NCBI GenBank assembly: GCA_030523555.1
Contig: JAUNIH010000001.1
Span: 1 to 64,000, forward strand
DNA: 64,000 nt
Source of the DNA: Erysipelotrichaceae bacterium
Lineage (GTDB): Bacteria; Bacillota_I; Bacilli_A; Erysipelotrichales; Erysipelotrichaceae
Direction: 5' to 3'
The notes beneath the pieces are model-generated. The model had not been told where the DNA came from and did not search any database. It saw nothing but the letters and a program-made list of their open reading frames with translations. The translations under genes and the position numbers were made by a program. Positions 29,932 through 39,853 of the stretch are shown piece by piece (position 1 is the first letter of the stretch; every line of letters starts with the position of its first letter).

Positions 29932-29971
29932 AACCTCCTTTATTCCATAATTGAATAGTGGAGGTTTTTTT
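29932..29971 (+). terminator. terminator whose 3' arm carries the recombinase Shine-Dalgarno
   Basis: AACCTCC (29932-29938) pairs with GGAGGTT (29960-29966) and TATTC (29941-29945) pairs with GAATA (29953-29957); seven T follow (29965-29971). The GGAGG in the 3' arm is also the only Shine-Dalgarno for the ATG at 29972, with the T-run as spacer. In the folded state the site is hidden. Confidence 0.8.
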
Positions 29972-30808
29972 ATGCATATCATTATCATTACCCATTGCTC
30001 AATAGATTTATACCGAAAATATCTTTTATCGAAAGAAAAGAGTTTAAATACCATAAATAAATATGTAAAAGATATCATTTATTTTAAAAATTATATTAAT
30101 AATACTTTTATAAACAGAAAACATTTACTGGCATACAAAGAATATTTAAGTAACAGATATCTTCCTTCAACTGTAAACTGTAAGATATCTGCCTTAAACA
30201 GTTATCTACATTTCATGAAAGGGGACAGGCTTAAACTGTCATATATTAAGGTTCAGCATAATTCTTTTATCAGTGAAGACAGATTACTGAATAAAGAAGA
30301 ATACAGAAGACTTCTTATTGCTGCAAAAGAAAGAAACAATATGCGTCTGTACTATCTGATGATGACCATATGTTCTACAGGAATAAGGGTATCCGAATTA
30401 AGATATATAACTAAAGAATCCTTATATGAAGGTAAAGTTCTGATTACTAATAAAGGAAAGTCAAGGACAATACTTATTCCTGATGATTTATGCATAAGAC
30501 TTAAAAAATATGCAGAAAATATATCTGAAGGTCCTATATTCATAACATCTTCAGGAAAACCTTTAAACAGAAGTAATATACACCATGATATGAAGAAACT
30601 GTGCAAAGATGCAAAGGTAGATGAACATAAGGTATTCCCTCATAATCTGAGACATCTTTTTGCCCTAAGCTATTACTCAATAGAAAACAACATTTCTCAT
30701 CTCGCGGATATCCTGGGACATTCTTCTATAGAAACTACAAGAATATACCTGACAACAAGTATTAAAGAACATGAAAATATCCTTTCAAAGATGAAACTGA
30801 TTATATAA
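29972..30808 (+). CDS. tyrosine recombinase (candidate invertase of the adjacent switch)
   Basis: A 278-residue site-specific recombinase of the XerC/XerD/integrase family. Seen: an N-terminal SAM-like core-binding domain (SLNTINKYVKDIIYF near residue 25) and a catalytic domain with all key residues: arginine in STGIRVSELR near 131, lysine in NKGKSR near 158, HNLRH near 219, histidine in LGHSSIETT near 242 and the tyrosine in RIYL directly after. Its stop lies 5 nt before an inverted repeat that bounds the segment 30814-31038. Start: the ATG at 29972 has GGAGG 7 nt upstream; an in-frame TTG at 29951 is unlikely. XerC/D are possible relatives, but size and context favour a dedicated invertase. 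Confidence 0.85.
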   Translation: MHIIIITHCSIDLYRKYLLSKEKSLNTINKYVKDIIYFKNYINNTFINRKHLLAYKEYLSNRYLPSTVNCKISALNSYLHFMKGDRLKLSYIKVQHNSFISEDRLLNKEEYRRLLIAAKERNNMRLYYLMMTICSTGIRVSELRYITKESLYEGKVLITNKGKSRTILIPDDLCIRLKKYAENISEGPIFITSSGKPLNRSNIHHDMKKLCKDAKVDEHKVFPHNLRHLFALSYYSIENNISHLADILGHSSIETTRIYLTTSIKEHENILSKMKLII

Positions 30809-30833
30809 AAAAACACAGAATAGTTATTCTGTG
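30807..30833 (-). terminator. minus-strand terminator formed by the left inverted repeat
   Basis: Read on the minus strand, the palindrome CACAGAATA-N2-TATTCTGTG is followed by seven T (complement of A 30807-30813). It should stop leftward transcription coming from the invertible segment before it enters the recombinase gene antisense. Read on the plus strand no T-run follows. Confidence 0.6.
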
Positions 30834-30836
30834 GTA
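30814..30836 (+). repeat. left inverted repeat (IRL) of the putative switch
   Basis: A 23-nt sequence whose first 20 bases form a near-perfect palindrome (CACAGAATA-GT-TATTCTGTG) followed by GTA. The reverse complement of 31016-31038 matches it at 22 of 23 positions. Inner symmetry of two half-sites around a short centre is what a tyrosine recombinase crossover site looks like. Confidence 0.85.
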
Positions 30837-30862
30837 TCGTAAACGAAGTTATTTTACAACAA

Positions 30863-30890
30863 ATTCTAAATATATAAAATACTACGTCAA
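30863..30890 (-). promoter_or_regulatory. minus-strand promoter inside the invertible segment (P1)
   Basis: On the minus strand TTGACG (plus 30885-30890), a 16-nt spacer and TAGAAT (plus 30863-30868). Five of six bases match in each box. Predicted start near 30856, about 20 nt from the left repeat. Confidence 0.5.
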
Positions 30891-30894
30891 AAAT

Positions 30895-30923
30895 TTTATA
30901 ACACCATTAATTTATAAATGTAA
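30895..30923 (-). promoter_or_regulatory. minus-strand promoter inside the invertible segment (P2)
   Basis: On the minus strand TTACAT (plus 30918-30923), a 17-nt spacer and TATAAA (plus 30895-30900) preceded by TGT (extended -10). Its -35 lies within the tandem repeat at 30915-30934. Confidence 0.45.
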
Positions 30924-30934
30924 CTAAATGTAAC
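30915..30934 (+). repeat. tandem direct repeat of TAAATGTAAC
   Basis: Two perfect adjacent copies of a 10-bp unit, about one helical turn, in the invertible segment and overlapping the -35 of P2. This is the kind of spacing used by an operator or a recombination accessory site; the nearby XRE protein or the recombinase are candidate ligands (inference). Confidence 0.7.
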
Positions 30935-31015
30935 CAAAAATTAAATATTTTTTTATTAAACCCTTCTAACAAAGGCTTTTTTACACTGAAAAAGGCTGTT
31001 TCAGAAGTAAATTCG

Positions 31016-31038
31016 TACTACAGAATAACTATTCTGTG
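31016..31038 (-). repeat. right inverted repeat (IRR) of the putative switch
   Basis: Reverse complement of the left repeat with a single G/A difference at position 20 of 23. On the plus strand the palindrome is followed by GTGAAGAA, with no T-run, so rightward transcripts would pass through it into the XRE gene 28 nt downstream. Confidence 0.85.
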
Positions 31039-31065
31039 GTGAAGAATTTCAAAAAGGTATTTGCA

Positions 31066-31305
31066 ATGACACAGTTTGAAAGAAGTATTGCCAGTATTAT
31101 AAGGGCGGAAAGAAAAAATGCCAGTATGACACAAAAAGATTTTGCTTTTAAACTGAATGTTAATTATCTTACCTATCGTGAGTATGAGAGAGGTAATATT
31201 TCGATGCCGTTACGGATTTTCTTCAAAGCCTGTCTGCTTCTTGAACTGGATCCTACCGAAACAGGAAAGAAAGCTTCAGACATTGCAAAAAACAATAATA
31301 TTTAA
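31066..31305 (+). CDS. small XRE-family regulator
   Basis: A 79-residue DNA-binding protein made of a single helix-turn-helix domain: RAERKNASMTQKDFAFKLNV (recognition region, residues 14-33) then YREYERGNISMPLRIFFKAC. No effector domain. ATG at 31066 has AAAGGT 8 nt upstream; an upstream in-frame GTG at 31036 lies inside the right inverted repeat and is unlikely. It is the first gene after the invertible segment and 19 nt before the large surface-protein gene, so it is probably the leading gene of that operon and may regulate it or the recombinase. Confidence 0.8.
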   Translation: MTQFERSIASIIRAERKNASMTQKDFAFKLNVNYLTYREYERGNISMPLRIFFKACLLLELDPTETGKKASDIAKNNNI

Positions 31306-31324: not shown

Positions 31325-34300
31325 ATGAGAAAGGAAACAAAAAGAGTATTACAGATAGTACTTACTCTTTTACTGGTATTTCAGCTGATGCCAGTAAGAT
31401 CCTTAAATGTTTACGCTGATGATACCAGTACAGTAACTGATACGACAGACGTGACAAGTCAGTCAACTGATGGCACTGGCACAAATGACACATCAGATGA
31501 TTCTACAGGTACCGGTGATGGTACAGGTTCAGACAGCACACCGGTTGATTCTATAGTAACTGATAGCGGGAATACGGATACATCATCAGATACTTCTGGA
31601 AGTGATAATGGAACAGGTTCATCAACTAATACAGCAGAAATAACAGGAACTTCAGATACTTCAAATGTTTCTGGTACTGCTTCAGTTAATGGCAATTCAG
31701 ATACTGGAAGTTCCGATATTGTTTCTGCGGATTCAGAACAGGTTACACTGATGTCTGCACCGCTTTTACTTGCGGCCCCTTTTGTTCCTGCAGCAGATAC
31801 AGTTGCCTATACTACTGATGCTCAGGGTATCGTTACTGAATTTACTTCTGTAAAAGACGCTTTTGATTCAATAGGCGCTGATGAAACTGCCACAGTTACG
31901 CTAGCTAAGGATGTTACAACTTCTGAACAGCTTTTTGTTAAAGATGGAAGTATAATTACTTTTGATTTAAAATCTTTTACTTTCTCATCAACATTCTGTA
32001 GTTCAAAAGAAGCGTTTATTAGGGTTACAGATGAATCAACGCTGATTTTGGAAGCTGAACAAAACGGAAGTATAAAAGCAAATAACTCGCAATCAACATC
32101 AGGCACTGCAGTAGCAGTTTATGTTAATAACTCAAGTTTTATTATGAATAGTGGGAATATTTATGCCTATAAGTGGAACGCTATTTGTGCTTCTGGAGAA
32201 AAAGCCAACGTTATCATTAACGACGGTTATGTTCAGTCTACAGGTCAACAGGCAAATATAACTGTAAGCGTAGATTTAAAAGCGCATCTGGAGATGAACG
32301 GCGGAACGATATCTTCGTCCAATAATCAGGGATGTCTTGGAACTTCTCATGAGGGAACTGTTGAAATAAATGGAGGAACGATTACAAATAAAGGAAATAC
32401 TGCAGTCCGCATGGAAGGGGGGACCATTACTTTTAACGATGGTGTAATAAGTCAGACAGGCAAAGGCCATACTGTGCTTATGGCAAAAATTGATGAATAT
32501 GGTTATACAGATGCTGGTCCATCTGACAAGGACGAAATAAATACTTTTATTATGAATGGAGGTACTATAATTTCCGACAATAATCATACACATGCAATAG
32601 TTTGTATTTGTTCTGATCGTGGTTATTTTAAATTTAATGATGGAATCATAAAAGGGAATACCGATATAGATGGGTCCAAGAGAGGAACTCATGTCCAGGT
32701 TGTTGGTGGAATTATGGATATGTATGGTGGAACCATAAGAGATATTGACTGGGGTGGAGTTGTTATTGGCTCTGGTGGAACATTCAATATGTATGATGGT
32801 CTTATTACAGATTGTGACCGTTTAAGTTCATCTAATGGCGGTGGAGGTGTTACAGTTTATGATGCCAAATCAACCGCGAATATCTATGGTGGTACAATTA
32901 CTAACTGCACATCCGGAAGAGGTGGAGGAATATATAATAAAGGCACATTAAATATCTATAATCTGACCTTGACCGATTGCTCAGTACCGGAAAATTACGC
33001 ATCATCCGGCAGCACTAACGGAATATATGGTGGTGCTATCTATAACGTTTCTGGTGCAACCGCCAATATCTATTCCGCATACATCAGTGGCAATACCGCT
33101 AAAAATGGTGGTGCCATCTATAACGAAGGAACAATCAACCTTAAAAACGGTCTTAATTATAATGATGAAAACGGTGATGCATACGGTGAACTCAGAATTG
33201 TCAAAAACAGTGCAAGCGGAGGAACCGGTGGCGGTATCTATAACACCGGTACTGTTACTGTTGAAGACGGTATAGTTCTATGCAACAATACCGGCAAATC
33301 CAACGCCAACGATATCTACAACAAGAATGGTGCCACTCTTAACTTGGGTGAAGTGTGTTCGGATGAATACCTTGATCCTGTTTTCACAGGTCTCTGTAAT
33401 CATCTGATTACTCACTGGCTGACCGATCTTTCAGATGACAGATGGGGCTGCCATAATATTACGGATGTGGTTGATCCGAAAACATATACAGATGAAATGT
33501 ATATTATAGCCGCACACGCAATAAATCTTACTGTTTCTAAAAAATGGGTTGATACACCCGAAAATATGGCTCGTACAGAATCAATCAGCTTTGATTTGAT
33601 GACTAATGGTAACAAGGTTGATTCTTATACATTATCCGAAGAGAACAATTGGTCTACAACAATTAGTGTAAATCCAAGATATATTTATTCTGTTGTTGAA
33701 GCAGATGTAGCAGGATATACTGCTACATACAGTACTGAAACAGATGCTGATGGAAATATTTCTATCCTGATTACAAATACACGTAAAGTAAAGAACTTTG
33801 ATATTGATGTTGATAAGCGTTCTACGAATTTAGATGATGATTTAATTTCAAATGTTACTTTGACTGTACCGGGCGAAGATATTCCTCTTGCGACTGATGT
33901 AGTCTTTGTTTTGGATAAATCTAATAGTACAAACGCAACAATTCAGCAGGGCATACAAAACCTGTTGGACGATTTGACAGATGTTTTAGATAAAACAAAC
34001 GCCAAAATTAATGTAGGCGTTGTCGTATTTACGGGTGAAGCTCATTCGTTCGGATTGTACGATTTAGCTACACAACGTGGAGAAATTGATACTGCAGTTA
34101 AAGCAAAATTCTCACATGGCACAAATATTCATTCCGGTTTGTTAGCCGCACAAAAAATGTTGGCTGAAGATACAGATACACCAGATGGACGTAAGTACAT
34201 GGTTTTGGTTTCTGATGGTATTTCTTACTTATTCAATGAAAACCCAACTTCGGTTGCGATGAATATTCCTGGTGGCGATTCTGGCTGGTACAATCAGGCT

Positions 34301-35635
34301 TGTTATGATTGGGTGGTCAGCTGGGCACTTAAATATGGTACGCCAAGTTATGTTCCAGAAAATTGGGATACATATTTAGCTGGTATTGGTTCAATACTTG
34401 ATAAACAAGGCGATACATATGATTATGTTTGGGAAGTGGATGCACGTCCTGAAGGTACTCCGATGGATGATAGAGATTCAGCTAAGGCTTCATATGCATG
34501 TTCTGCTGATAAAGCTTTATACATGGTAAATGAAACATATAAAGAAATGTCTTCAGTTTATAATTGTTATGCATATAACTTAGGAACTGGTTCAGATTAT
34601 AAGTTTGGCCCATCATTCATGAACTACCTGGCAAACGGTCAGACAGTTACATTTGACGGTATCAAGAATGACATTATCAAAGTTGTAGGTGCCGGATCTT
34701 ATGTAGTAGATTATATCGGTTATGATGATGGATCTAAATATACAGATGGTGATGGAAACGGATATGACTTTGATTTCATTACTGATTCATCAACATTATC
34801 ATTAAAAGTTGGAAATGATGAATATCCAGTAACTTCTGCAAGTGATACAACATACTACTTCGATATTAATCAGGATGGTACAGCTGAATATAAAGTTGAA
34901 TATGTAAAAGGCAATGGTACAACTGAAGAAAGATTTATATGGACATTCAATGTCGATGTAAATATGGATGCACCAGTTTCCTTAACATATCAGGTTAAAT
35001 TAACTAATCCTAGTACTAAATCAGCTCGAATTGTGAGAGACGCGAGTGAATTCACAAATAAAGAGTTTGGTACTTATGATGAAGATGGAAGTAAATTTAA
35101 TGGAGTACAAAATGGTACATTATTATTTACTAACCAAAAGGCTACCTTATATCCTGTACCAACAGTAGATGATGGCAGTTATATTGAACCTATTAATTTC
35201 CCAATGCCAGCTGTATCTTATAAACTCGCTCCATTATATCTGGTCAAAACCCTGTCAAGATATAATGAAACATTAAATGGATCGACATTCGTATTCAGTG
35301 TTTCTGTTACATATAAGGACACTGAATTGTTTAATCAGATTGTAGGTATGACATTTGATTCCAATTCTGCTTCAAAAACCGTCATTATAGCCGATTTACC
35401 TGTAGGTGCTGAAGTAACAGTGACTGAAATGTATTCAGGTTCTACTTATAAACTGACCAGTGAAAATCCTCTTAAGACAACAATAATTAAGGATGATCCT
35501 GCGACAGATGTCGTTGAAGTAGCCAAAGTATCATTTACCAACGACTATGATACAAAACTCATCGGTGGTTCAGGTGCTATCAATGAGCACTGTAAAGACA
35601 CTGTCTCATATGGCTGCGTTGCTGTACAACAATAA
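31325..35635 (+). CDS. large secreted beta-helix / Cna-B / VWA surface protein
   Basis: A 1436-residue exported protein. Seen in order: signal peptide with cleavage after VYA (residue 31); a Ser/Thr/Asp/Gly-rich stretch (33-139); a right-handed beta-helix-type repeat region (about 160-670) with many GGTI, GGAIYN and GGGIYN turns; a Cna-B domain (about 731-822, starting LTVSKKWVD and ending ITNTRK); a von Willebrand A domain (about 855-1050) with MIDAS motif DKSNS near 862 and FTGEAHSFG later; and a C-terminal Cna-B-like domain (about 1301-1432). There is no LPxTG or membrane anchor; it ends shortly after NDYDTKLIGGSG. AAAGGAGA precedes the ATG. Likely an adhesin or fibre component; partners follow in the operon. 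Confidence 0.85.
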   Translation: MRKETKRVLQIVLTLLLVFQLMPVRSLNVYADDTSTVTDTTDVTSQSTDGTGTNDTSDDSTGTGDGTGSDSTPVDSIVTDSGNTDTSSDTSGSDNGTGSSTNTAEITGTSDTSNVSGTASVNGNSDTGSSDIVSADSEQVTLMSAPLLLAAPFVPAADTVAYTTDAQGIVTEFTSVKDAFDSIGADETATVTLAKDVTTSEQLFVKDGSIITFDLKSFTFSSTFCSSKEAFIRVTDESTLILEAEQNGSIKANNSQSTSGTAVAVYVNNSSFIMNSGNIYAYKWNAICASGEKANVIINDGYVQSTGQQANITVSVDLKAHLEMNGGTISSSNNQGCLGTSHEGTVEINGGTITNKGNTAVRMEGGTITFNDGVISQTGKGHTVLMAKIDEYGYTDAGPSDKDEINTFIMNGGTIISDNNHTHAIVCICSDRGYFKFNDGIIKGNTDIDGSKRGTHVQVVGGIMDMYGGTIRDIDWGGVVIGSGGTFNMYDGLITDCDRLSSSNGGGGVTVYDAKSTANIYGGTITNCTSGRGGGIYNKGTLNIYNLTLTDCSVPENYASSGSTNGIYGGAIYNVSGATANIYSAYISGNTAKNGGAIYNEGTINLKNGLNYNDENGDAYGELRIVKNSASGGTGGGIYNTGTVTVEDGIVLCNNTGKSNANDIYNKNGATLNLGEVCSDEYLDPVFTGLCNHLITHWLTDLSDDRWGCHNITDVVDPKTYTDEMYIIAAHAINLTVSKKWVDTPENMARTESISFDLMTNGNKVDSYTLSEENNWSTTISVNPRYIYSVVEADVAGYTATYSTETDADGNISILITNTRKVKNFDIDVDKRSTNLDDDLISNVTLTVPGEDIPLATDVVFVLDKSNSTNATIQQGIQNLLDDLTDVLDKTNAKINVGVVVFTGEAHSFGLYDLATQRGEIDTAVKAKFSHGTNIHSGLLAAQKMLAEDTDTPDGRKYMVLVSDGISYLFNENPTSVAMNIPGGDSGWYNQACYDWVVSWALKYGTPSYVPENWDTYLAGIGSILDKQGDTYDYVWEVDARPEGTPMDDRDSAKASYACSADKALYMVNETYKEMSSVYNCYAYNLGTGSDYKFGPSFMNYLANGQTVTFDGIKNDIIKVVGAGSYVVDYIGYDDGSKYTDGDGNGYDFDFITDSSTLSLKVGNDEYPVTSASDTTYYFDINQDGTAEYKVEYVKGNGTTEERFIWTFNVDVNMDAPVSLTYQVKLTNPSTKSARIVRDASEFTNKEFGTYDEDGSKFNGVQNGTLLFTNQKATLYPVPTVDDGSYIEPINFPMPAVSYKLAPLYLVKTLSRYNETLNGSTFVFSVSVTYKDTELFNQIVGMTFDSNSASKTVIIADLPVGAEVTVTEMYSGSTYKLTSENPLKTTIIKDDPATDVVEVAKVSFTNDYDTKLIGGSGAINEHCKDTVSYGCVAVQQ

Positions 35636-35651
35636 GAAAAGGAGAGATTAG

Positions 35652-36155
35652 ATGATGAAAAATATCAAATTATTATTAGTTTTATCAGCTGTATTATTAA
35701 TCGCTTCTTTCTCGGTTAACAGTACTCTTGCTTACTTCTCCTCTCACAGTGATGCTGAGGGAGGAAAAACTGTAGTATTGTCCCACTCAACAGAGATTGT
35801 TGAAAAAATTGATAATCTCAATAAGTTTATTACTGTAAAAAATACTGGTAAATCTACTATCTTTGTCAGAGTTGCAGTATTCTACAGTACTTCAGAAAAT
35901 GTAACTATTACTTTAGAAGATGGATGGACTGATGGAAAAGATGGCTATTACTACTATGCATATCCGCTTGATCCTGGTCAAACAACTTCGACAGGTATAA
36001 ATGCTGCAGTTTCCTTTAAGGATAAAGACAAGGACCATGATTTCCAGGTTGTAGCCGTATGCGAAAATACGCAATATGTCTACTATGGTGGGAATGAGCC
36101 TGTAAATGCTCCAACCTACAAAGGATGGCATCTGATGGAAAAGGAGGGACAGTAG
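35652..36155 (+). CDS. TasA/camelysin-like exported protein
   Basis: A 167-residue exported protein. Its signal peptide ends STLAYFSS (cleavage after the alanine at 27), the typical sequence cut by SipW-type signal peptidases in TasA, TapA and camelysin. The mature part is a short beta-rich domain (FITVKNTGKSTIFVRVAVFYS near 56) like the TasA fold. A SipW-like peptidase is encoded at 38626. AAAAGGAGAG precedes the ATG. Possible fibre subunit or minor subunit; function inferred from signal peptide and context. Confidence 0.75.
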   Translation: MMKNIKLLLVLSAVLLIASFSVNSTLAYFSSHSDAEGGKTVVLSHSTEIVEKIDNLNKFITVKNTGKSTIFVRVAVFYSTSENVTITLEDGWTDGKDGYYYYAYPLDPGQTTSTGINAAVSFKDKDKDHDFQVVAVCENTQYVYYGGNEPVNAPTYKGWHLMEKEGQ

Positions 36156-36156
36156 T

Positions 36157-36945
36157 ATGTTTAAATCATTAAAATCCAAATTACTGCTTCTTTTGGGTGT
36201 ATGTCTTATTGCTGGAGGCCTGTATCTTCAGGCACCGGTAAACAGAACTGCAGCGGTTCTGCAGTATGTACAGAGCGATGATGAGGCTTATAAGACATAT
36301 ACCGATACCGCTTCTTTAAGAATTGCACTTCTCGAGAATGGCAATATTGTATCTGCCGGTACCATGGAAAGTAACAGGACTTCCACTGATCCTTATGCTG
36401 CTTATGGTGTATCAGGTACTCTTTCATTCAATAAGATGGATAAGCTTGTCATTGGTAAACCATACGCTGAAAATGTTGCGGCTAGAAATATCGGTAACTA
36501 TGCCGAATATGTAAGAGTAATTATCACTAAGAGCTGGACAACAGAAAGTGGCAAGGATACATCTTTAGATCCTGCGCTTATTGAACTTACACTCGATAAA
36601 AAATACTGGGTAATTGATACTGATGAAAATACTTCTGAAAGAACAGTAATGTACTATAAGGAAATTCTTGAAAGTAATAAGCAGACAGAACCATTTATTA
36701 AAGGTATCAGAATCAGTGATGAAATTGTTCCGGTTATTACAGAAAAAGAGACTACCAATGATAATGGTGTAACAGTTGTGACAACTACTTTCTCATATGA
36801 AGGTTATATCTTCAATGTCAAAGCGGAAGTACAGGCTGTACAGACACATAATGCTGCTGATGCGATTACTTCTGTATGGGGTATCACTTCAACCAAATAT
36901 GAAGATCTGACAGGTCTAAATCTGGCAGATGGAGATAACTATTAG
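36157..36945 (+). CDS. TasA-like exported protein, second copy
   Basis: A 262-residue exported protein with an N-terminal hydrophobic segment (LLLLLGVCLIAGGLYLQAP, residues 10-27) and a beta-rich mature part with KPYAENVAARNIGNYAEYVRVIITKSW near 98, similar to the TasA-type NTG/EYVRV strand pattern of the previous gene. No C-terminal anchor. It begins 1 nt after the upstream gene and has AAGGAGGG ahead of it. Likely another fibre or matrix subunit exported through the same pathway; this is inferred. Confidence 0.7.
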   Translation: MFKSLKSKLLLLLGVCLIAGGLYLQAPVNRTAAVLQYVQSDDEAYKTYTDTASLRIALLENGNIVSAGTMESNRTSTDPYAAYGVSGTLSFNKMDKLVIGKPYAENVAARNIGNYAEYVRVIITKSWTTESGKDTSLDPALIELTLDKKYWVIDTDENTSERTVMYYKEILESNKQTEPFIKGIRISDEIVPVITEKETTNDNGVTVVTTTFSYEGYIFNVKAEVQAVQTHNAADAITSVWGITSTKYEDLTGLNLADGDNY

Positions 36946-36957
36946 GAGGGATAGGAA

Positions 36958-37659
36958 ATGAAGAAATTAATATATGTTTAAATAGCTTTAATGTTACTTG
37001 TTCCTGTTAATGTATTTGCCAGCTCAAGTAATGGTACTGAAGGTACTGTTACCTTTACAGGTACAGCACTTGTAGAAGACTATAATACTGCGGGTTATGC
37101 CAGTGAAGTTAATTCTTTACAGCCTGGCGATTCCTTCAGTGTTACGGTAAACAACACCAATAACTATGACGGCAATACTGCGTGGTACTTCTCAAACAGC
37201 GTCTTAAAGACTCTGGAAGAATTGTCTGTCGCAAAGAATGGTGCCTATACCTATACACTTGCCTATAACGGTACAACAATCTATGATTCTTCTACTGTCG
37301 GTGGCGAAACTGTTTCTTCAAGCGGTACAGGTTTATATCAGGCTACTGATGCCCTGGATGAATGGTTCTATATCGATACATTAAAGAAGGGTCAGAGCGG
37401 ACAGATGATTCTGACAGTTAATTTCGATGGTGAAACTCAGGCAAACAACTATATGCTGACAGATGCCGCCTTACAGATGAAATACGCTGTAGGTATTATT
37501 CCTGAAGGCGTAGATACTGTGGAATACTACTACACCAACCAGCGTATTATCTATACAGGTGACAACAAAACAAGAAATATCTATTCCTATGTAGCGATTG
37601 GATGTGGTGCAATCGCCATAGTTCTGGCTTTTGCTGTATCAAAGATGAAAGAGGACTAA
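36958..37659 (+). pseudogene. membrane-anchored surface protein with a stop codon in its signal peptide
   Basis: Reading from the ATG at 36958, which has a strong AGGAGGG, gives MKKLIYV, then TAA at 36979, then IALMLLVPVNVFASSSNG in the same frame, plainly one signal peptide with a nonsense codon. Restart at the ATG at 36991 would lack both a Shine-Dalgarno and the positively charged N-terminus. The rest is intact: a TasA-like beta domain (LQPGDSFSVTVNNTNNY part) and a C-terminal IIYTGD-like motif, membrane segment and short charged tail KMKED, resembling a sorting signal with the LP of LPxTG replaced. A single base change (TTA to TAA) would explain it; a sequencing error or a genuine null allele cannot be told apart here. 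Confidence 0.7.
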
Positions 37660-37663
37660 GATT

Positions 37664-38521
37664 ATGAAGAAAATACTTACTGTTTTAATTACTCTTTTAC
37701 TTCTTAGTGTTTCAATGTTTACAGTATTCGCTGATGGTTATACCTATACACTGACAATTTCCGCAGATGGTCAGGTTGTCTATAAGCTCGATAACCTCAA
37801 ATATGGAAGTGTAGTTTCGCTTCCTCAGGGTTTTGTACAGAATCTTGTTACACCAAGTGATTCAAGATACTATACCAAAGGTGTAAAGAAAGCCGGGTAT
37901 GATAACGCTGAAGCTCAGGCATCATATACTGTTACTGAAGATCTTGACCTTGTAGTATTCTATGGTCTAAAAAGTTCTCAGGTATCATATACTGTAAGAT
38001 TTGTTGATGGAAGCGGAAATCAGCTTCTGGCTGATCAGACTTTCTATGGCAATGTAGGTGAAAAGGCCGTTGCGAGCTATCAGTACATAGACGGGTATGT
38101 ACCTCAGGCATATAATCTGGCTATGACTTTAAAGGATAAGGACAATGTCTTTACGTTTGTGTATTCACCAGATCCTACTGGTACCTACAGACTTATTGAT
38201 CTTGGTACACAGTATATTATCGGACCTACGGTTGTGGTAAACGGTGGAACTACACCTGCTCCTGCAACACCAGCCGATAATACTCCTGCAGATAATACAC
38301 CAGCAGAAACAGTAGTTGACAATACTACTCCACAGACAAATACCCCTGAAGAAATTATCGATATCGATAACAGCACCACGCCAACTGCCAACCCTGGCAA
38401 TTCCATCAGTATTCCATTAATGGTTGGTGGAGCATGTGCAGTAGCCGGCTTGGGAGGTCTTGTCTTCTTCCTTCTTAAGAGAAAGAAAGATGAAGACGAA
38501 GAAGAAACTGCTGAAGAATAA
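37664..38521 (+). CDS. anchored surface protein with MucBP-like domain
   Basis: A 285-residue cell-surface protein. Seen: signal peptide ending VFA-DG near residue 24; a MucBP-like domain (VSYTVRFVDGSGNQLL near 106 to FTFVYSPDP near 165); a Pro/Thr/Ala-rich wall-spanning stretch (about 195-240) built of repeats of the PADNTPAD/PAET kind; and a C-terminal signal of membrane segment (LMVGGACAVAGLGGLVFFLL) plus KRKKDEDEEE. No LPxTG is present; the sequence before the membrane segment is TANPGNSIS, which resembles the NPxTN type recognised by class B sortases, and such a sortase is encoded at 39107. Probable sortase substrate (inference). Confidence 0.75.
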   Translation: MKKILTVLITLLLLSVSMFTVFADGYTYTLTISADGQVVYKLDNLKYGSVVSLPQGFVQNLVTPSDSRYYTKGVKKAGYDNAEAQASYTVTEDLDLVVFYGLKSSQVSYTVRFVDGSGNQLLADQTFYGNVGEKAVASYQYIDGYVPQAYNLAMTLKDKDNVFTFVYSPDPTGTYRLIDLGTQYIIGPTVVVNGGTTPAPATPADNTPADNTPAETVVDNTTPQTNTPEEIIDIDNSTTPTANPGNSISIPLMVGGACAVAGLGGLVFFLLKRKKDEDEEETAEE

Positions 38522-38575
38522 TCTCAGCATAATTAATTAACAGTTTCCTCAAACTGAATGGGAACTTAGAAAATC

Positions 38576-38612
38576 AGGTGCCCTTAAAACGGCACCTTTA
38601 ATTTATTATTTA
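38576..38612 (+). terminator. terminator after the surface-protein genes
   Basis: AGGTGCC (38576-38582) pairs with GGCACCT (38591-38597), followed by TTTAATTTATTATTT. It separates the surface structural genes from the peptidase-sortase pair, which would then be expressed at a lower level or from their own promoter. Confidence 0.75.
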
Positions 38613-38625
38613 CTTATATCAAAAA

Positions 38626-39105
38626 ATGAAAAAGAAGAATATATCAGTAATCAGAATAATCGGTATAGTCCTTGTTACAGGGGCTGTTTTGATATCTCTA
38701 ATTACCGGTTTACCTTCTTTAATGGGATATAAGAGTTATGCTGTAACAAGTGGCAGTATGGAACCTGCTATTAATGTAGGGGATGTTATATATGCTAAAA
38801 GTGTTGATCCTGAAGAACTTGTTAAGGGAGATATCATTACCTACTATTCCAATGGCATAACTGTAACTCATCGTATATCAGATATTGATACAGATAACAG
38901 ACAGTTTATAACTAAAGGTGATAATAACGGATTAGAAGATATAATGCCTGTAGATTATGATGAGGTAATAGGGAAGGTAGTTTATTATACAAATACCTTT
39001 GGACCGTTTATCACATTTCTTTCTACTTTTACAGGAAAGATGATTCTCTTTGGAATGCTGCTGGGTGGTTTTATCCTGTGGGAAATAGGGGATCATATCA
39101 GATAG
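38626..39105 (+). CDS. sipW: SipW-type signal peptidase I
   Basis: A 159-residue membrane peptidase of the ER/archaeal type (S26B), with one N-terminal and one C-terminal membrane segment. Seen: the catalytic serine in TSGSMEPAINVGDVI near residue 42 and a histidine in TVTHRISD near 84 in place of the bacterial lysine, then KGDNNGLED near 102. SipW processes TasA-like proteins, matching the STLAYFSS signal peptide at 35652. The ATG has no Shine-Dalgarno (TTATATCAAAAA precedes it), so initiation may be weak or leaderless. It ends 1 nt before the sortase gene. Confidence 0.88.
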   Translation: MKKKNISVIRIIGIVLVTGAVLISLITGLPSLMGYKSYAVTSGSMEPAINVGDVIYAKSVDPEELVKGDIITYYSNGITVTHRISDIDTDNRQFITKGDNNGLEDIMPVDYDEVIGKVVYYTNTFGPFITFLSTFTGKMILFGMLLGGFILWEIGDHIR

Positions 39106-39106
39106 T

Positions 39107-39853
39107 ATGAAAATGTTAAAGAAAATAATATATGTTCTTATAGCTGTTCTTTTAAGTATATCTGTATATGCCTTATACAATCTCTATAAAGATAAAACAC
39201 AGGAAAAAGAAGAGATAAGACAGAATGAAGAATTAAGTAATACTGTGCATGTCTATCATAATAATGAAATAACAGGTGAAATATCTTTACCTGACTTAAA
39301 TAAGCTTAAAGAGATTAATAATGATCTTACAGGATGGTTATATATAGAGAATGCGGGTGTAGATTATCCGGTGATGTATACACCAAATGATGTAGAGAAG
39401 TATCTTCATCTATCTTTTGATGAGTCTTATTCTTTTGGAGGTTTACCATTTATAGGAGAAAACTGTGATGAAGATTCATATGTCTTTATTATCTATGGAC
39501 ATAATATGTTAAATGGAACAATGTTTGGTTCTATAGATCAGTATTCAAATAAATCATTCTATGAAGATAATCAGATTATTGAATATACAACACTTTCTGA
39601 AACAAGAAAATATCAGATAGTCTATGTCTTTAATACAGTAATAGATGAAACTTCACCGATAGCTCCATATTTCATGTTTGTAGGAAATCTTACTGAAGAA
39701 TCATTTGATTATCTTATAGACTTCTGCGATTCAAATAAACTCTATAATACAGGACAGAGTATAGAATACGGTGATCAGGTGATGATGCTGTCAACATGTT
39801 ATACAAATAATGAGTTTGGAAGATTTGTGATTGTAGCTAAAAGAGTATCTTAA
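39107..39853 (+). CDS. class B sortase
   Basis: A 248-residue membrane-anchored transpeptidase. Seen: N-terminal membrane segment (IIYVLIAVLLSISVYALYNLY part), the class B entry INNDLTGWLYIENAGVDYPVM near 67, catalytic histidine in YGHNMLNGTMFG near 131, cysteine in MLSTCYTNN near 229 and arginine in FGRFVIV near 240. Class B enzymes attach proteins to the wall or, in some lineages, build pili. Candidate substrates are the anchored proteins at 36958 and 37664. Whether it uses NPxTN-like or other signals cannot be decided from sequence. Confidence 0.88.
   Translation: MKMLKKIIYVLIAVLLSISVYALYNLYKDKTQEKEEIRQNEELSNTVHVYHNNEITGEISLPDLNKLKEINNDLTGWLYIENAGVDYPVMYTPNDVEKYLHLSFDESYSFGGLPFIGENCDEDSYVFIIYGHNMLNGTMFGSIDQYSNKSFYEDNQIIEYTTLSETRKYQIVYVFNTVIDETSPIAPYFMFVGNLTEESFDYLIDFCDSNKLYNTGQSIEYGDQVMMLSTCYTNNEFGRFVIVAKRVS

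What the first reader, a model, noticed from the sequence alone, without database searches (positions are those of the whole stretch)
31325..39853. TasA/SipW-type fibre cluster combined with a class B sortase and non-LPxTG sorting signals
The cluster joins matrix-type genes (two TasA-like proteins, SipW-type peptidase) with a class B sortase and two anchored proteins that lack LPxTG: one has IIYTGD and the other NPGNS before the membrane segment. NPGNS resembles the NPxTN class B signal. This suggests a wall-linked fibre in which TasA-like subunits are tied to sortase-anchored bases. The combination is not one I recognise.
Basis: partly seen in the sequence, partly recalled or inferred. Interest (0 to 1): 0.65.

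Follow-up and report, generated by a model that had tools for sequence, protein, structure and literature searches.

The report
Switchable SipW fibre operon with sortase
A gut bacterium carries a gene set that probably builds a protein fibre tied to its cell wall, apparently behind a promoter that can flip; the gene set is a widespread but uncurated relative of known biofilm-matrix and pilus systems, and one of the two proposed attachment signals is not real.

Summary
This is one instance of a conserved module (tasA1-tasA2-p4-muc-sip) found in over 40 loci from Bacillota and Actinomycetota. Many loci have a class C sortase upstream; a class B sortase follows directly in the window, six congeners and one further locus.

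IIYTGD is a divergent copy of a conserved x-T-G-D sorting signal (TG in 43 of 47 homologues, TGD in 35). NPGNS is not a signal: nothing like it occurs in 49 homologues, nor in a 74%-identical partial copy in the same genome. In this assembly the IIYTGD gene has a TAA at codon 8.

The nearest recombinase relative has the same layout with its own repeats.

The TasA/SipW-plus-class-B-sortase combination has precedent: C. perfringens srtB beside sipW-bsaA, and the class B sortase plus SipA of S. pyogenes pili. I read it as a phase-variable, partly wall-anchored fibre operon: a new variant of a known kind.

The parts
29951..30808 (+). Xer-type tyrosine recombinase, proposed invertase
   Evidence: Pfam Phage_integrase E 5.5e-26; best relative 44% identical in a congener, with the same repeat layout beside it
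30814..30832 (+). left inverted repeat CACAGAATAGTTATTCTGT
   Evidence: only pair with arms of 16 nt or more within 600 bp in the 64-kb window; 0 of 200 shuffles reach it
30833..31019 (.). proposed invertible segment with promoter-like sites
   Evidence: promoter-like sites lie in both directions, so ON or OFF state is not decided
31020..31038 (+). right inverted repeat ACAGAATAACTATTCTGTG
31036..31305 (+). small HTH_3 (XRE-type) protein; an ATG at 31066 is a likelier start than GTG 31036
   Evidence: Pfam HTH_3 27.1 bits, over cut-off; start judged by reading the sequence
31325..35635 (+). large secreted protein with glycine-rich repeats, Cna_B and VWA domains; no C-terminal membrane anchor
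   Evidence: VWA E 5.1e-10, Cna_B E 6e-10
35652..36155 (+). tasA1, BsaA-like protein with SipW-type signal peptide (..TLAYFSSHSDAEG)
   Evidence: TIGR04090 22.6 bits; 17 of 37 family members hit the same model
36157..36945 (+). tasA2, BsaA-like protein, beta-rich
   Evidence: TIGR04090 25.9 bits; 28 of 46 members hit it; model pLDDT 82
36958..37659 (+). p4, anchored jelly-roll-like protein; TAA at 36979-36981 (codon 8) interrupts the signal peptide
   Evidence: profile match 36958-37656 with one TAA inside
37546..37563 (+). sorting signal IIYTGD of p4
   Evidence: aligned with I/LPxTGD in congeners; Thr invariant in 47; TG 43 of 47, TGD 35 of 47
37664..38521 (+). muc, MucBP-like protein with C-terminal membrane segment; no conserved sorting pentapeptide
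   Evidence: MucBP_2 E 1.8e-4, MucBP E 0.004, both under their cut-offs
38390..38404 (+). NPGNS, rejected as a sorting signal
   Evidence: 0 of 49 homologues have a similar motif; GLFGS in the 74%-identical partial copy at G000:C61
38626..39105 (+). SipW-like (archaeal/ER-type) signal peptidase
   Evidence: TIGR02228 100.6 bits over cut-off 51.85
39107..39853 (+). class B sortase
   Evidence: TIGR03064 113 bits; solved SrtB structures E 2.6e-18

Best explanation
A phase-variable surface-fibre operon. A tyrosine recombinase flips a segment of about 0.2 kb that carries the promoter, switching the operon ON or OFF (inferred). The SipW-like peptidase processes tasA1 and tasA2, which assemble into a matrix-type fibre (inferred from family resemblance and conserved gene order). 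The class B sortase cleaves p4 at x-T-G-D and attaches it to the wall or to the fibre base, so p4 is the anchor subunit (inferred from motif conservation and pairing). The VWA/CnaB protein is the adhesive part (inferred from its domains). The MucBP protein stays in the membrane or is held by another signal; NPGNS plays no part. In the assembled genome p4 carries an early stop, so in this strain or in part of the population anchoring may be lost.
For: Conserved order tasA1-tasA2-p4-muc-sip in over 40 loci. TGD in p4 conserved and tied to an adjacent class B sortase within the genus. The sortase nearest to the window's in its own genus, G017:C36, lies directly after an ORF ending IPDTGD plus a membrane segment. 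Sortase catalytic residues present. Repeats and recombinase, with a second example in a congener: 44% identical recombinase, own 17-nt repeats, arm starts 207 bp apart against 206 in the window, beside a VWA operon.
Against: p4 has a TAA at codon 8. In C. perfringens deletion of the neighbouring srtB did not affect BsaA polymers or pellicles (PMC7395162). The tasA2 model matches no fibre protein well: the TasA fibre is rank 27 with probability 0.23. Inversion itself was not seen; only one orientation is in hand. Promoter-like sites occur in both directions and little above shuffles. No repeat pair of 17 nt or more was found just upstream of other copies of the cluster, so the switch is not a general part of the module.
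Confidence: 0.55

Rival explanations
1. A matrix operon in which the sortase has little to do with the fibre: tasA1/tasA2 assemble on their own, as BsaA does, and SrtB only anchors p4 as a separate surface protein.
For: C. perfringens srtB deletion has no effect on BsaA (PMC7395162); most copies of the module have no class B sortase; tasA1 and tasA2 show no C-terminal membrane segment or sorting signal.
Against: p4 is the fixed neighbour of tasA2 across phyla, which argues that it belongs to the fibre.
Confidence: 0.3
2. A decaying locus: a once functional anchored-fibre cluster now losing its anchor (stop in p4, divergent signal IIYTGD in place of I/LPxTGD, large protein with an unusual C-terminus).
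For: TAA in p4; the window's tasA2 and sortase sit on long branches; the large protein ends without the W-rich tail of many relatives.
Against: All other reading frames are intact; motif, membrane segment and catalytic residues are kept; most p4 homologues outside the genus also lack the proline (VKTGD).
Confidence: 0.15

Closest known systems
sipW-bsaABCRSD with neighbouring srtB, Clostridium perfringens (PMC7395162)
   Same: SipW peptidase, BsaA-family matrix protein, further secreted proteins and a sortase gene named srtB in one locus; bimodal expression
   Different: There srtB lies 5' of sipW and is dispensable for the matrix, and a two-component system controls the operon. Here srtB is 3' of sip, the operon holds a TGD-bearing p4, and a recombinase with inverted repeats sits upstream
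Streptococcus pyogenes pilus locus with class B sortase Spy0129 and SipA (PMC3019223, PMC4049620)
   Same: class B sortase, signal-peptidase-like gene and a non-LPxTG signal (EVPTG) in a fibre locus
   Different: the major pilin there bears the signal itself; here tasA1/tasA2 carry none
tapA-sipW-tasA, Bacillus subtilis
   Same: SipW-type peptidase and exported beta-rich matrix proteins
   Different: no sortase gene belongs to that operon (general knowledge); sequence and fold matches to TasA are weak here
Invertible switches of Clostridioides difficile (PMC9286219)
   Same: short inverted repeats (19 bp at pdcB) around a segment of about 0.2 kb that controls a surface or regulatory operon; site-specific recombinase
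   Different: inversion is shown there and only inferred here

Membership tests
BsaA family (TIGR04090) | score over the curated cut-off of 60 bits | tested here: not met
   tasA1 22.6 and tasA2 25.9 bits; 17 of 37 and 28 of 46 family members hit the model at E 0.01 or better, best 1.2e-9: related, not members
TasA | fold match to solved TasA | tested here: inconclusive
   tasA2: 8aur rank 27, prob 0.23; p4: 8aur rank 16, prob 0.85, TM 0.32 and bundling pili 7ueg prob 0.94, all above E 0.001; tasA1 not modelled
SipW-type signal peptidase | archaeal/ER-type signal peptidase I model over cut-off | tested here: met
   TIGR02228 100.6 over 51.85
SipW-type signal peptidase | Bacillus SipW equivalog over cut-off 190 | tested here: not met
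   80.7 bits: SipW-like, not the Bacillus equivalog
class B sortase | equivalog TIGR03064 over cut-off 153.75 | tested here: not met
   113 bits, E 1.3e-32: divergent relative
class B sortase | best-matching solved structures are SrtB; catalytic His, Cys, Arg present | tested here: met
NPxTN class B sorting signal (for NPGNS) | motif conserved before the membrane segment | tested here: not met
   0 of 49 homologues; absent from the partial copy in the same genome
sortase substrate with x-T-G-D (p4) | motif, membrane segment and basic tail at the C-terminus, conserved | tested here: met
sortase substrate with x-T-G-D (p4) | cleavage by the neighbouring sortase | not testable with these tools
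   needs a biochemical assay
invertible promoter | inverted repeats beside a recombinase | tested here: met
   second example in G002
invertible promoter | both orientations observed | not testable with these tools

The most novel reading that the evidence does not exclude
SipW-secreted, TasA/BsaA-like fibres that are covalently fixed to the wall by a sortase through a dedicated anchor subunit (p4), a hybrid of matrix fibre and sortase pilus spread across Bacillota and Actinomycetota, here under a recombinase-driven ON/OFF switch.
Probability: 0.3. Interest if true: 0.7.

Novelty: new variant of a known kind. Interest (0 to 1): 0.48.

Why it matters
The five-gene module recurs across gut Bacillota and Eggerthellaceae, yet its anchored protein p4 hits no curated model convincingly. 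If p4 is a sortase-fixed base for SipW-type fibres, two kinds of structure treated as separate (matrix fibres and sortase pili) share a system, and the x-T-G-D anchor gives a direct handle to test it. The switch would give mixed ON/OFF populations.

Tried and rejected
NPGNS as an NPxTN-type signal: rejected. 'Congeners without any sortase have lost TGD': first suggested, then rejected, because one search shows a divergent sortase-like protein in all four of those genomes; the genome-level association (p 0.016) rests on the Pfam search and should not be used. One origin of the cluster sortase: the six congener sortases form a clade (100/99) and the window's sortase falls elsewhere (86/89, near G017:C36 and G051), so separate recruitment is suggested but not shown. 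Fold searches of p4 and tasA2 gave no match at E 0.001. Repeats beside two more distant recombinase relatives: none of 13 nt or more (L132, L133). A literature search for SipW-dependent proteins with sortase in Firmicutes found nothing.

Full report
Setting. The window is contig 15 of a 1.79-Mb draft genome, 95% complete. Named relatives of the cluster are mostly Erysipelotrichaceae and other Bacillota genomes from ruminant guts, so the source is probably one of these; the species was not identified.

The observation. The seven genes lie as described. Domain searches give VWA and Cna_B in the large protein and a MucBP-like domain in the 285-aa protein; weak BsaA-family hits in both TasA-like proteins, an archaeal/ER-type signal peptidase over its cut-off and a class B sortase under its equivalog cut-off. 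Solved structures most like the sortase are mostly SrtB enzymes, including two listed as Sortase B at E 2.6e-18 and 6.4e-17.

A conserved module. Searches of 60 relatives and of named genomes show tasA1-tasA2-p4-muc-sip in the same order in over 40 loci (in some loci sip is not seen because the contig ends or lies further off): Erysipelotrichaceae, Lachnospiraceae including Butyrivibrio fibrisolvens 16/4, Oscillospiraceae, and Eggerthellaceae such as Adlercreutzia. In a phylum-wide sample of 392 genomes the p4 profile gives a full-length match in seven, so the module is scattered rather than universal.

Sortases. In many loci a class C sortase lies about 4 kb upstream of p4, in several after pilin-like proteins ending LPxTGG. 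A class B sortase directly after sip is found in the window, in six congeners (G010, G013, G017, G022, G027, G031) and in L106; in L069 one follows a distant sip. The six congener enzymes form one clade and the window's falls outside it with moderate support, so the position may have been filled more than once.

Sorting signals. p4 homologues align through the signal: congeners with an adjacent class B sortase have IPYTGD, LPYTGD, IPDTGD or IPNTGD where the window has IIYTGD. The Thr is invariant in 47 sequences; TG is kept in 43 and TGD in 35. Outside the genus VKTGD, SQTGD and NPQTGD are common, so a missing proline is normal. Within the genus TGD goes with the adjacent class B sortase (6 of 6 against 0 of 8), though the loci are related. 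The closest sortase within the genus follows an ORF ending IPDTGD. NPGNS has no counterpart in 49 muc homologues, and a 74%-identical partial muc copy elsewhere in the same genome has GLFGS there.

A broken anchor gene. p4 has a good ribosome-binding site and ATG at 36958, then TAA at 36979-36981. The profile match starts at the upstream ATG and crosses this stop. It may be a real mutation, a population variant or an assembly error.

A probable switch. Inverted repeats of 19 nt at 30814-30832 and 31020-31038 are the only such pair in the window and are not reached in 200 shuffles. The recombinase gene ends 5 bp before the left repeat. In congener G002 the closest recombinase (44%) has 17-nt repeats of a different sequence at the same spacing, beside a VWA-protein operon (0 of 200 shuffles). 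Layout and size resemble C. difficile switches (PMC9286219). Direction of the promoter is not settled.

Structure. Models of p4 (pLDDT 78) and tasA2 (pLDDT 82) are beta-rich. p4 has weak matches to archaeal bundling pili and the TasA fibre and its profile touches TasA sequences at E 0.035; tasA2 is closer to cohesin-like folds. None is significant.

Conclusion. Precedents exist in C. perfringens (PMC7395162) and S. pyogenes (PMC3019223). It is a new variant of a known kind.

Noticed in passing
30814-31038 with 29951-30808: Inverted repeats around a likely promoter next to a tyrosine recombinase: probable phase-variation switch of the whole cluster.
   Followed up: yes
36979-36981: In-frame TAA at codon 8 of the p4 gene.
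   Followed up: partly
L130 7994-8217 (G002:C2): Second recombinase with its own repeat pair beside a VWA-protein operon in a congener.
   Followed up: partly
L147 10008-10451 (G000:C61): Partial copy of the 3' half of muc (74% identical), orphan, just upstream of WXG100- and EssC-like type VII secretion genes.
   Followed up: partly
L047 7949-8833 (G000:C1): Divergent sortase-like protein of 294 aa, with relatives in 11 of 11 congeners tested, often missed by the Pfam sortase model.
   Followed up: partly
L076 and L077: Near-identical clusters in records titled Blautia and Muribaculaceae; one label is probably a binning error.
   Followed up: no
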